Shown: positions 32,471 through 36,353, counted from the stretch's first letter. The stretch is DNA of 39,703 bases from Nanobdellota archaeon (GCA_020053375.1 JAGVNG010000027.1:1-39703), one strand, 5' to 3'. Notes: generated by a model from the sequence alone, not told the origin. Program-made: numbers and translations.

Positions 32471-32716
32471 TCATAAGAACATTCTAGAAATTAAGGGCGA
32501 ACTATCTTCTTTCTTAATCTTTATTAGGATTTCTTTTTCTCTTGGCACTTCTTCAAAATATAGCTCTAGAGCTTCCTTTAGCCTAGCCTTCGCCTGTTCT
32601 ATAGTATCTCCTTGAGTAACTATATTAGGAAATTGTATAGAACTTATGCTATAAATTCTATTATTGCCCTTGCCTTCAGGGGTTATAATAATGTCAATTT
32701 CCATTCTATTTTCCAT
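32471..32716 (-). CDS. hicB: HicB-family antitoxin
   Basis: SISSIQFPNIVTQGDTIEQAKARLKEALELYFEE. Confidence 0.82.
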   Translation of the reverse strand: MENRMEIDIIITPEGKGNNRIYSISSIQFPNIVTQGDTIEQAKARLKEALELYFEEVPREKEILIKIKKEDSSPLISRMFL

Positions 32717-32751
32717 GCTATAATTTAAACATTTAACCTATTTAAGACTTT

Positions 32752-32915
32752 TTAAAATATACCTTCAAATTCCTCCCTTTTTATCCCTGCTTCTTCACAT
32801 TCCTTAAGCAAATTTAATCTTACAGCATTGCTCGGTCTTTTCACATTAACTAAAACTATTGGTCTTTTCAAAGAAGGTAAGCTATCTATCCTGTTTATGA
32901 TTATATGGTCTCCTC
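32752..32915 (-). pseudogene. hicA: hicA toxin, 3' part (interrupted)
   Basis: Joins in frame to 36266-36353 when the 32916-36265 insertion and one TSD copy are removed; ends ...LLKECEEAGIKREEFEGIF*. Confidence 0.82.
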
Positions 32916-33005
32916 TACTCTGGTGCATTAATTGGTCTTAATGTCTTAATAACAAAATATAAAAATCTTGCAAGAATTAGCAGGCATAAGAAATGAAATT
33001 GCAAA

Positions 33006-33041
33006 TTCAGGCACCGAATAATTTAAATAGTTCAGGTACCT
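33006..33041 (+). promoter_or_regulatory. Operator-TATA-operator module of the 52-aa AbrB-like gene
   Basis: TTCAGGCACCGAA...TTTAAATA...TTCAGGTACCT; boxes 25 bp apart. Confidence 0.65.
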
Positions 33042-33050
33042 CTATCTTTT

Positions 33051-33209
33051 ATGAAAATAAGAAAAGTACTTGATAAAAGAGTTGGGAACACTGCTTACTT
33101 CAAATATCTTATAACTTTGCCAAAAGAGATTGTAGAAAATTCAGGACTTCTTGAAAAAGATTTAAAAGTAAAAAAAGAAGAACACAAAATTATAATTGAA
33201 AGAGATTAA
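33051..33209 (+). CDS. 52-aa AbrB/MazE-like DNA-binding protein
   Basis: MKIRKVLDKRVGNTAYFKYLITLPKEIVENSGLLEKDLKVKKEEHKIIIERD*; below ORF-track cutoff. Confidence 0.7.
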   Translation: MKIRKVLDKRVGNTAYFKYLITLPKEIVENSGLLEKDLKVKKEEHKIIIERD

Positions 33210-33210
33210 A

Positions 33211-34566
33211 TCAGTTAAAATGATATGTGCTCCCACGTCTTTCTCCATAATGTTTAGCTAATCCTTTTGATACTAATTCATTTAATATGCGAATTGCAGT
33301 GGGTCTGCTTATTTTGTGTACTTTCATAACATCTGAAGTTGAAAGAATTCCTCTTTCACGCCCATATAATAAAATAATATCTCCTAATGTTTCAGGTTTT
33401 CTTTCAGCAAATTTTAAATTGAGATGAAATATATTTGAAAGAATTGTTATCTCTGGCTGTTCTAATCCTCTACGCATCATTTCTCTTTTTATTATGGGTA
33501 TGCCCTGTCCAGCTGCTTCTGCTTTATGTACTGGACGCAAGAAATTATATATCCATTGATTACGATGAGTTGGAATTCCCTGATTTAATATTTTTTCTAA
33601 TTCTGCAGGGGTTGGTGCACCTGGATTTTGAAATTCAACCCTATCATCAAAAATCCTAATTAAAGATTCTTGTGGGTCACTATAATCTCTATGAACAATC
33701 ATATTAACCACAATTTCTCGGAGCACTATCTCTGGAATTATTGGTTCTTCAAATCTATCAGAACCCTGATAATATGTTCTCACAGGTAAATTAAGCTTTA
33801 AAAAATTAATACAACTATCAATTAATTTTCTTGCAGTTGTGCTTAAAAGAATGGCTGCAATTCTATCTATGGGTTTATCTCCTCTAAATCTTACAAGTTG
33901 AATTTTACATTGCGGTAAGAAGTATGATGGATTATCAACTAAAACAATAGTTCCTAAATTAGTTAATTGGTCTCCTTGTTCCATAATTGCTTTATTGCTT
34001 TTAAGAAAATTTTCTTCGGTTTGTGGATTTAAGGAATTACGTTCAGCTGCTTTTTTCATATAAAAAAGAAGCTCACTTCTATCTATGTCTGTTTTAGTTG
34101 CTGGACTTGGTCTCTGTTCCCACGTCAACATATTTCTACGAGTAAATATATCCCTAAAATTATTCTGAGTCATTTTCTTTGCTGAATCTTGAACCCTATG
34201 ATAACTAACATCTCTGTAAGAACAAATGTTCCCTCCTAAACCTGTTATTTTATATATGGCAATTTTTTTACCCTGACGTTCAATAAATTTTGGACTTGAG
34301 GTTGTAGGAATAGGGTCACAATTTCTCAATACACTTCCTACCTGTGTAATTACTGTTTGTTCATCATTTACCCCTATAACTTTAGGAGGACGTTCATCAT
34401 TAAGTCCAATTATTAACCAACCACCACCAGATGTCGCAAATGCAGCAATTTTCTCCCCTAAGACATCTAAATTTTTTGTTCCTAATGTCCAATCAACTTC
34501 ATAGCCTTCTGGCATCTGTCCCGCTAAAATTGAATCTACTATTTCTTCTGGCTTAAAATTTTCCAT
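33211..34566 (-). CDS. Schlafen/AlbA_2-type putative ATP-binding regulator with C-terminal wHTH
   Basis: EVDWTLGTKN...AAFATSGGGWLIIGLNDE; EIVLREIVVNMIVHRDYSDP; C-terminal winged helix. Confidence 0.8.
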   Translation of the reverse strand: MENFKPEEIVDSILAGQMPEGYEVDWTLGTKNLDVLGEKIAAFATSGGGWLIIGLNDERPPKVIGVNDEQTVITQVGSVLRNCDPIPTTSSPKFIERQGKKIAIYKITGLGGNICSYRDVSYHRVQDSAKKMTQNNFRDIFTRRNMLTWEQRPSPATKTDIDRSELLFYMKKAAERNSLNPQTEENFLKSNKAIMEQGDQLTNLGTIVLVDNPSYFLPQCKIQLVRFRGDKPIDRIAAILLSTTARKLIDSCINFLKLNLPVRTYYQGSDRFEEPIIPEIVLREIVVNMIVHRDYSDPQESLIRIFDDRVEFQNPGAPTPAELEKILNQGIPTHRNQWIYNFLRPVHKAEAAGQGIPIIKREMMRRGLEQPEITILSNIFHLNLKFAERKPETLGDIILLYGRERGILSTSDVMKVHKISRPTAIRILNELVSKGLAKHYGERRGSTYHFN

Positions 34567-34642
34567 AATATAAATGTAAAGATATATCTTTATATATTTT
34601 ACTATTTTACATTTTTTGAATTATAGATAAAAAAGACAATAA

Positions 34643-34680
34643 TTCAGGTACCGAAACATATATAAACATCAGGTACCTGA
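34643..34680 (+). promoter_or_regulatory. Operator-TATA-operator module of the transposase
   Basis: TTCAGGTACCGAA...TATATAAA...TCAGGTACCTGA; boxes 25 bp apart. Confidence 0.65.
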
Positions 34681-34687
34681 ATGTCTT

Positions 34688-35581
34688 ATGGAAACGAGAC
34701 GTTCAAAGTGCCAAAGCGATAATATAGTAAAACGAGGCACTTTTACAACACAAGCATATGGAAAACAACAAAGATACTATTGCAAAAACTGCAATAAGAA
34801 ATTCATAGAGCATACTGGCTTTTACAGAATGAGAAACACCCCACAAAAAATTACTTTATCTCTTGACCTATTCTTTCGTGGTTTAAGCACTCGTGAAGTC
34901 CAGAGCCATCTACAAGCATTTTATCCTCATAATTCAGACCACAGCACAATATTAAGGTGGATTAGAAAATACTCTCTGCAAATTGCTAAATATACAGATA
35001 AGTTAAAAGTCAATACTGGCTCTTACATAGAAGTTGATGAGATGGAATATCATAGAAGAAAAAGCCATAAAGCAAAATTAGGTATAGATGAGAATTGGTT
35101 TATTGATGCAATAGATGTTAAAACCAGATTTATGCTTTCTTCTGCTTATACAAAAGAAAGAACTGGAAAAGAAGTTAATTCTGTTCTTGAAAAAATCAAA
35201 AAGAAATCTGACAATATTAAGATAGTCACCACAGATGGTTTTACAGGATACATAAAACCAATAAAAAGAGTTTGGGGTTACAATAAGCATACAAGAAATC
35301 ATAATGTCAAGCATAATATTGTAAATGCTTCAAGAGGTGAAGGCTTTAATATTTGGGTTGAAAGAATGCACAATAGTATAAGACAAAGAACACAGAATTT
35401 TAGAGGTTTTCACGGCTCTATTAATTCTGCATACTCAATAATGAAAGGCATAGAAATCTTTTACAATTTCGTAAGAAAACACGAAGCCCTTAAAGGCAAA
35501 ACTCCATCTGATGTTGCTATTTCATCTTTGAAATTTGAAAGCCCTAATAGATGGCTTGAATTGATTAAGATGTCAAATTAA
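34688..35581 (+). CDS. DDE transposase with N-terminal zinc ribbon (IS6/IS240-like)
   Basis: CQSDNIVKRG...YYCKNCNKKF; DEMEYH, TTDGFTGY, VERMHNSIRQRTQNFRGF...NFVRKHEALKGKTPSDVA. Confidence 0.82.
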   Translation: METRRSKCQSDNIVKRGTFTTQAYGKQQRYYCKNCNKKFIEHTGFYRMRNTPQKITLSLDLFFRGLSTREVQSHLQAFYPHNSDHSTILRWIRKYSLQIAKYTDKLKVNTGSYIEVDEMEYHRRKSHKAKLGIDENWFIDAIDVKTRFMLSSAYTKERTGKEVNSVLEKIKKKSDNIKIVTTDGFTGYIKPIKRVWGYNKHTRNHNVKHNIVNASRGEGFNIWVERMHNSIRQRTQNFRGFHGSINSAYSIMKGIEIFYNFVRKHEALKGKTPSDVAISSLKFESPNRWLELIKMSN

Positions 35582-35931
35582 ATTTTTTGTATATATTTAG
35601 AAATCTCGTTCACATCTCTTTTAACTCTTTCAACACCTATTTCAGAGTCAGCTCCAATAAAAAATCTAATCTCACTATGAACATATACACTTGTGGCTAA
35701 TTTTGTTGTTCCTGCTTTATGTTTTCCAGAATCTCTTATCTCTCTTGCTTTACTGCCTGAATAAATTTTAGCGTCTGCTCTTATCCAAATCGTATCAAAC
35801 ATTTCTTTTGGTTTGGATAAAACAAATAAGACAATTGTAACTATCCAAGATATGACAGCAAGAGTTATAATAGTTGAAGAACCTTGAAAGGCAATAATTG
35901 TAAGTAAAACAGAAACTCCTAAACATATCAA
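35578..35931 (-). CDS. Membrane protein, transposon cargo
   Basis: Two N-terminal TM segments; starts in the 4-nt overlap with the preceding ORF. Confidence 0.6.
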   Translation of the reverse strand: MICLGVSVLLTIIAFQGSSTIITLAVISWIVTIVLFVLSKPKEMFDTIWIRADAKIYSGSKAREIRDSGKHKAGTTKLATSVYVHSEIRFFIGADSEIGVERVKRDVNEISKYIQKI

Positions 35932-36203
35932 GCATATTTTCTTAATTCTTTAGCATTTTTACGCGATTGTTCTTCTGACCTTTTAGCTTCCATTTTTGCT
36001 ACAAAGTCTGAAACTCCATCTGCTACATTATCTTTTGTAACTTCTGGATTTGGATATGAAACCTTATATCCTAAATCCTCTAATTTTGTAGAAAGGTTTT
36101 CAATAGTAATTTGTGGATGCCCAGATTCCAAAGGCACTTGTGTATAAACAGGTTTTCTCTTCAAATCTTCTTTTGAAGGAAAATCATCATCTTCATCACT
36201 CAT
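35928..36203 (-). CDS. Acidic hypothetical protein, transposon cargo
   Basis: 91-aa ORF overlapping the start of 35578-35931. Confidence 0.6.
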   Translation of the reverse strand: MSDEDDDFPSKEDLKRKPVYTQVPLESGHPQITIENLSTKLEDLGYKVSYPNPEVTKDNVADGVSDFVAKMEAKRSEEQSRKNAKELRKYA

Positions 36204-36265
36204 TCTTTTTTAAAGAATCTTATACTTAAAAATTTAACTAAAAGACCAATTAATGCACCAGAGTA

Positions 36266-36353
36266 GGTCTCCTCTGATTCTTTTGATTTCCAAGTTATGT
36301 TTCTTTAATATGGAAATTATACTACTTACTATCGGAGTCAATCTGTAGCCCAT
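36266..36353 (-). pseudogene. hicA: hicA toxin, 5' part (interrupted)
   Basis: ATG at 36353: MGYRLTPIVSSIISILKKHNLEIKRI|RGDH...; continues in frame at 32915 after excision. Confidence 0.8.

What the first reader, a model, noticed from the sequence alone, without database searches (positions are those of the whole stretch)
32907..36274. Precisely delimited DDE element with large TIRs, 9-bp TSD and unusual cargo
Seen: 24-bp perfect terminal inverted repeats, TSD GGTCTCCTC, and contents: 52-aa AbrB-like gene, Schlafen/AlbA_2-type protein, zinc-ribbon DDE transposase, and two overlapping small ORFs (one membrane, one acidic). Simple IS6-like elements are normally single-gene with 8-bp TSDs, so a five-gene, 9-bp-TSD unit is atypical. 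Inference: a cargo transposon, possibly with defence or regulatory function.
Basis: partly seen in the sequence, partly recalled or inferred. Interest (0 to 1): 0.75.

Follow-up and report, generated by a model that had tools for sequence, protein, structure and literature searches.

The report
Archaeal cargo transposon with own repressor
This is a jumping DNA element of tiny DPANN archaea, one of a widespread and apparently undescribed family whose members share a transposase and a small, probably self-controlling regulator but each carry different passenger genes, often restriction systems that defend against foreign DNA.

Summary
The element is real and correctly delimited: 3,350 bp (32916-36265), perfect 24-bp inverted ends, 9-bp target duplication, single copy in a 679-kb DPANN genome. 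It is not a one-off. I delimited 25 elements of its transposase clade (this one included), then 10 more in a later set. Of 31 exact target duplications 30 are 9 bp (one 10). All carry cargo (2.0-7.7 kb); none is a bare IS. Near-identical cores carry unrelated cargo (L038/L041). Sixteen of 35 carry DNA methyltransferase (restriction-modification) genes. The 52-aa AbrB-like protein belongs to the core: most elements have either it or a 48-aa zinc ribbon, never both. In AbrB elements, similar operators flank the TATA boxes of tnp and of the AbrB gene, and the operator sequence varies with the element; a later element (L150) fits. I infer an autoregulated repressor of transposition.

Corrections: the two small ORFs are one gene broken by a frameshift; the transposase lacks one zinc-ribbon cysteine; 9 bp is the clade's rule. 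Published archaeal IS6 elements are 671-853-bp single-gene ISs with mostly 8-bp duplications. This one is IS6-like but fails several IS6 criteria. What this copy's cargo (AlbA_2/GHKL/wHTH protein) does is unproven.

The parts
32907..32915 (.). left copy of the 9-bp target site duplication GGTCTCCTC
   Evidence: sequence; length set by relatives
32916..32939 (+). left terminal inverted repeat, 24 bp
33008..33040 (+). two operator half-sites (CAGGCACC 33008, CAGGTACC 33033) flanking the TATA box of the AbrB-like gene
33051..33209 (+). 52-aa AbrB/MazE-like regulator (core gene, inferred repressor)
33211..34566 (-). cargo: 451-aa SLFN_AlbA_2 + HATPase_c_4 + winged-HTH protein
34645..34680 (+). two operators (CAGGTACC 34645; palindrome TCAGGTACCTGA 34669-34680) flanking the tnp TATA box, same 25-bp spacing as at the AbrB gene
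34688..35581 (+). 297-aa IS6-like DDE transposase (D117, D183, E225); degenerate N-terminal zinc ribbon
35578..36203 (-). cargo: one gene broken by a frameshift into the two small ORFs 35928-36203 (acidic part) and 35578-35931 (membrane part)
36242..36265 (-). right terminal inverted repeat, 24 bp
36266..36274 (.). right copy of the 9-bp target site duplication

Best explanation
A unit (non-composite) cargo transposon of an IS6-like, zinc-ribbon DDE transposase clade that is widespread in DPANN archaea. Shown: the ends, the 9-bp duplication, a conserved core (transposase plus a small regulator) and interchangeable cargo between the same kind of ends. Inferred: the transposase recognises the TACTCTGGTGC-type ends and inserts the whole unit with a 9-bp stagger. 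Inferred: the 52-aa AbrB-like protein binds sites that flank the TATA boxes of tnp and of its own gene, blocks TBP/TFB or polymerase there, and so keeps transposition low and self-limited. Inferred: the passengers (here an AlbA_2/GHKL/wHTH protein and a now broken membrane-protein gene; restriction-modification systems in many relatives) persist because they help, or addict, the host. This copy shows signs of decay (frameshifted cargo gene, lost zinc-ribbon Cys), unless these are assembly errors.
For: TIR, TSD and single copy. 25 clade elements delimited with any TSD of 8-11 bp allowed: 22 exact 9 bp, one 10, one 9 with a mismatch, one none. Later set: 10 of 15 loci delimited, 8 exact 9-bp TSDs, none of 8. 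Cargo in every element, sizes 1,993-7,723 bp. Core/cargo independence: L038 v L041 share 1,369 bp at 89.6% and differ elsewhere; likewise L082 v L083 and L157 v L074. AbrB and zinc-ribbon partners mutually exclusive, P=0.0004, and again in the later set. Operators flank the tnp TATA in 10 of 10 AbrB elements; the tnp/AbrB promoter match is best within the element, permutation P=0.0008, shuffled maximum 70 against 88. The palindrome occurs once in the genome. L150, examined afterwards, has the same layout. Joined flanks restore one open reading frame.
Against: No movement, DNA binding or repression has been measured. The AbrB protein of the window is below Pfam's cut-off. Delimitation favours well-preserved copies, and 5 of 15 later loci could not be delimited. 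Some clade elements have no recognised small partner. The permutation test uses only 8 elements. All genomes are draft assemblies.
Confidence: 0.8

Rival explanations
1. It is a plain IS6-type insertion sequence into which unrelated genes happened to fall; the AbrB gene and cargo have nothing to do with the transposon.
For: Published archaeal IS6 elements are single-gene ISs (PMC6807381), and ordinary 941-945-bp ones exist in a relative of the same class.
Against: All 35 delimited clade elements carry cargo inside TIR+TSD; the small regulator recurs and its operators sit on the tnp promoter.
Confidence: 0.05
2. The AbrB-like protein is an antitoxin or cargo regulator and not a repressor of transposition.
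For: The weak Pfam match is to MazE antitoxin.
Against: No toxin gene pairs with it across elements; it keeps company with tnp while the cargo changes; in the window the operator sites are found only at its own and the tnp promoter.
Confidence: 0.12
3. The AlbA_2/GHKL/wHTH protein is part of the transposon's own regulation and not a defence or other cargo gene.
For: It has a C-terminal winged HTH; relatives of it are common, and those inspected lie outside such elements; PADLOC gives only a partial match to a pAgo model.
Against: None of the other 30 elements of the first set carries a homologue by all-against-all BLASTP, so it is not a needed helper; defence genes (restriction-modification) are the commonest recognised cargo.
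Confidence: 0.25
4. The element is a decayed, immobile remnant.
For: Frameshifted cargo gene and loss of one zinc-ribbon Cys.
Against: Ends and TSD are perfect, the DDE triad is intact, and the tnp reading frame is open.
Confidence: 0.3

Closest known systems
IS6/IS26 family, archaeal branch (ISH14, ISPfu1, ISC735 and others; PMC6807381, PMC7986276)
   Same: DDE transposase related over the catalytic core (NCBIfam IS6 E=2.9e-22); G at position 7 of the ends; relatives' ends such as TACACTGTTACC resemble GGCACTGTTACC of ordinary archaeal IS6.
   Different: 9-bp instead of 8-bp TSD, no GG tips, 2.0-7.7 kb with several genes instead of 671-853 bp with one, N-terminal zinc ribbon, below the IS6 model cut-off.
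ISDsp3, the single passenger-carrying IS6 member listed in PMC7986276
   Same: An IS6-like transposase with a passenger gene between its ends.
   Different: Bacterial, 1,456 bp, 8-bp TSD, one passenger, no intact zinc finger (PMC6807381, PMC7986276).
Clostridial zinc-finger IS6 elements (clades VII/VIII, or h/i; ISCpe7, ISTet2)
   Same: Zinc finger at the N-terminus of an IS6-like transposase.
   Different: Single-gene elements with 8-bp TSDs from Clostridia (PMC6807381); no cargo or regulator described.
Tn7-like transposons with defence cargo (PMC8649781, abstract only read)
   Same: What it works like: a conserved transposition core with exchangeable cargo that includes defence systems.
   Different: Multi-protein TnsABC machinery (own knowledge); here one IS6-like transposase and far smaller units.

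Membership tests
IS6/IS26 family (ISfinder sense) | DDE transposase with IS6-type catalytic core | tested here: met
   IS6 is the best NCBIfam match; D117, D183 and E225 invariant, including IS26 and other IS6 rows.
IS6/IS26 family (ISfinder sense) | Score above the NCBIfam IS6 equivalog cut-off (125 bits) | tested here: not met
   79.4 bits.
IS6/IS26 family (ISfinder sense) | 8-bp target site duplication | tested here: not met
   9 bp here; 30 of 31 exact TSDs in the clade are 9 bp. Two of the 37 archaeal ISs in PMC6807381 are also recorded with 9.
IS6/IS26 family (ISfinder sense) | GG at the tips | tested here: not met
   Ends start TA (TT, TG in relatives). Many published archaeal members also lack GG (PMC6807381).
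IS6/IS26 family (ISfinder sense) | Single transposase gene, about 0.7-0.9 kb | tested here: not met
   3,350 bp; clade 1,993-7,723 bp.
IS6/IS26 family, archaeal branch | E--F---K-R signature of published archaeal transposases | tested here: not met
   E--H---R-R in this clade; the sister clade L080-L084 does show E--F---K-R.
IS1 family | Score above the NCBIfam IS1 cut-off (100 bits) | tested here: not met
   50.6 bits.
tIS / cargo transposon (descriptive class) | Passenger genes between the TIRs, within one TSD-flanked unit | tested here: met
   This element and 34 relatives.
AbrB/MazE-type regulators | Pfam MazE_antitoxin above its cut-off | tested here: inconclusive
   13.4 against 24.7 bits here; relatives L059 and L082 also below; only the weakly related L057 protein passes (38.4).
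SLFN_AlbA_2 + HATPase_c_4 proteins (cargo) | Both Pfam domains above their cut-offs | tested here: met
   30.7/25.3 and 54/26 bits.
Known anti-phage defence system (cargo of this copy) | Match over the full length of a PADLOC model, with its partner genes | tested here: not met
   Only a partial match to a 1,121-position pAgo model.
IS6-like copy-in mechanism | Cointegrate formation | not testable with these tools
   Needs a transposition assay.

The most novel reading that the evidence does not exclude
A previously unrecognised family of IS6-like unit transposons is a main vehicle for restriction-modification and other genes among DPANN archaea. Its control modules (an AbrB-like repressor with operators that vary along with it, a zinc-ribbon partner, or a CGAA-hairpin leader before tnp) are exchanged between elements.
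Probability: 0.5. Interest if true: 0.75.

Novelty: new variant of a known kind. Interest (0 to 1): 0.62.

Why it matters
DPANN archaea have tiny genomes, and how they gain genes is poorly known. Small, precisely bounded transposons with exchangeable cargo, nearly half of them carrying restriction-modification genes, give a concrete route for moving defence genes in this group, and their TIR plus 9-bp TSD makes further cargo easy to find. Repressor/operator pairs that vary together from element to element make transposon self-control in archaea directly testable with purified proteins and short DNA. It also widens what IS6-like transposases are known to carry: the main review lists one passenger-bearing member.

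Tried and rejected
Plasmid, phage and viral-contig collections hold no relative of this transposase. IS1 membership rejected on score. No Rfam RNA inside the element; only the neighbouring tRNA-Glu. The TIR is not repeated elsewhere in the genome. AlbA_2 as a clade-wide core gene rejected: no homologue in the other 30 elements of the first set. The IS1 row of the tree was a 91-aa fragment and its place is an artefact. Operators were not found directly upstream of the L150 AbrB gene but at the promoter of the short operon that holds it. Two weak hits of the 91-aa ORF (G057, G074) are radical-SAM-type proteins in another reading and were dismissed. Literature searches found no description of this family; the library is open-access only and ISfinder could not be queried.

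Full report
1. The observation. The ends (32916-32939 and 36242-36265, 24 bp, perfect) and the 9-bp repeat GGTCTCCTC outside them are as described. The end sequence occurs nowhere else in the 679-kb genome. From this copy alone one could also read a 25-bp inverted repeat with an 8-bp duplication, because the TSD begins with G and ends with C. Relatives settle it: ends start with T, have G at position 7, and the duplication is 9 bp.

2. What lies inside. A 52-aa AbrB/MazE-like gene (33051-33209, +). A 451-aa protein with SLFN_AlbA_2, a GHKL ATPase domain (HATPase_c_4) and a winged HTH (33211-34566, -). A 297-aa IS6-like DDE transposase (34688-35581, +); IS6 is its best NCBIfam match, at 79 bits against a cut-off of 125. 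The two small overlapping ORFs are one gene: both match one intact 210-aa protein of another genome of the same family (60% and 49% identity), where it lies between EF-2-like and EF-1alpha-like genes (my reading of the translations). Here it is broken by a frameshift. The transposase keeps D117, D183 and E225 but has Arg where 22 of 23 clade transposases have the first zinc-ribbon Cys. This copy may therefore be decaying, or these may be assembly errors.

3. It belongs to a large family. Relatives of the transposase at E<=1e-3 are in 67 of 186 related genomes, and closer ones (E<=1e-60) in 36 of 371 genomes spread over the phylum. Named records among them are Pacearchaeota, Woesearchaeota and other Nanoarchaeota/Nanobdellota. 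I delimited 25 elements of the clade, the window's included, with TSDs of 8-11 bp allowed: 22 have an exact 9-bp TSD, one 10, one 9 with a mismatch, one none. Sizes are 1,993-6,924 bp, median 4,334. From a later set of 15 loci, 10 could be delimited: 8 have exact 9-bp TSDs, none has 8, all have cargo, up to 7.7 kb. No bare, cargo-free member was found. A sister clade (L080-L084) has ends beginning TGAGCTGT and 8-bp TSDs in 5 of 5, also with cargo. By contrast G142, of the same class, has ordinary 941-945-bp IS6 elements with GGCACTGTTAC ends, one of them with a clear 8-bp TSD.

4. Core and cargo are separate. L038 and L041 share 1,369 bp (zinc ribbon, tnp, right end) at 89.6% but have unrelated left arms. 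L082 and L083 share 1,130 bp at 89% with unrelated right arms. L157 and L074 share 1,317 bp at 80%. DNA methyltransferase genes, often beside a restriction gene (MjaI, MvaI/BcnI, HNH or fused Eco57I type), occur in 12 of the first 25 elements and 4 of the later 10; a few of these are assigned by BLAST cluster or by motif rather than by a Pfam match of their own. Independently, 11 of 77 strong N6/N4 methyltransferase genes in 102 related genomes lie within 4 kb of an IS6-like transposase, against about 0.65 expected under uniform placement (a rough estimate that assumes a mean genome of 0.75 Mb).

5. The small regulator. Profile searches find the AbrB-like protein in 10 of 31 elements (an 11th weakly) and a 48-aa zinc ribbon in 13, never both (chance 0.0004). 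Two more have a ribbon-helix-helix protein. The later 10 follow the same rule: eight zinc ribbon, one AbrB, one weak AbrB.

6. Operators. In all 10 AbrB elements the tnp promoter reads operator - TATA region - operator - start, with a core that differs by element: CAGGTACC (window, L065), CATGTAC (L059, L072, L084), TAGGTACC (L034, L040), TAGATACC (L067), CGGGTTCC (L082, L083). The AbrB gene's own promoter carries the same core in the same element, as a pair or as a single site. The match between the tnp and AbrB promoters is best within elements (sum 88; permutation mean 80, P=0.0008; maximum 70 in shuffled sequence). In the window the half-sites occur only at these two promoters, with the same 25-bp spacing, and the palindrome occurs once in the genome. 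In L150, examined afterwards, CGGG(C/T)(A/G)CC sites flank the tnp TATA and CGGGTTC sites flank the TATA of the operon that holds its AbrB gene. The window's AbrB gene and promoter are most like those of L065 (77.5% over 209 bp) although their transposases fall in different sub-clades, so regulator and operators seem to move as a block. Inference: an autoregulated repressor of transposition.

7. Insertion. Taking the element out with one TSD copy leaves one continuous minus-strand reading frame across the junction, next to an ORF weakly like a HicB antitoxin. The split gene looks like the small toxin partner of such a pair (resemblance only), so after noticing this I used the joined gene no further.

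8. What is known. The 37 archaeal IS6 entries in PMC6807381 are 671-853 bp with 206-237-aa transposases and mostly 8-bp TSDs (two with 9). Zinc-finger IS6 transposases are described there from Clostridia. PMC7986276 lists one passenger-carrying member, ISDsp3. I therefore call this IS6-like, not a member of IS6 as defined; PMC6807381 already argues that archaeal elements should leave that family. In working principle it resembles other cargo transposons that carry defence genes.

9. Limits. Nearly all genomes are draft assemblies. Delimitation favours well-preserved copies. Nothing here shows movement, binding or defence by experiment. The literature library is open-access only, and ISfinder could not be queried.

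Noticed in passing
Upstream of tnp (or at its start) in L038, L041, L048, L051, L055, L057, L060, L061, L071, L074: A short hairpin with an invariant CGAA loop and covarying stem (4 of 5 pairs change on both sides, 100% paired), in ten elements and in none of the ten clear AbrB elements; possibly a leader RNA that controls tnp.
   Followed up: partly
L085:7337-10887 (contig C8 of the same genome): A second long IS6-like element: GG ends, 8-bp TSD TAAGAAAG, 3,551 bp, zinc-ribbon partner and several other genes.
   Followed up: partly
L088:8011-12304, L099:7741-11107, also L091 and L105: A further group of related transposases of about 410 aa with an N-terminal extension; L088 and L099 also sit in 3-4-kb units with inverted ends and 9-10-bp direct repeats.
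   Followed up: partly
L139:7247-7879 and L140:7645-9009: Homologues of both cargo genes of this element lie near the EF-1alpha gene in two different genomes, a shared neighbourhood that may be an insertion hotspot.
   Followed up: no
window 32471-32906 and 36275-36353, minus strand: The element splits a small ORF next to a weakly HicB-like ORF, probably a toxin-antitoxin pair.
   Followed up: partly
L040:7034-8050, L048:6602-7534, L041, L156, L157, L150: Other cargo: ClpP/SDH-type serine protease genes (L040, L048), ABC-transporter-like operons (L041, L156, L157), a Fic-domain protein (L150).
   Followed up: no
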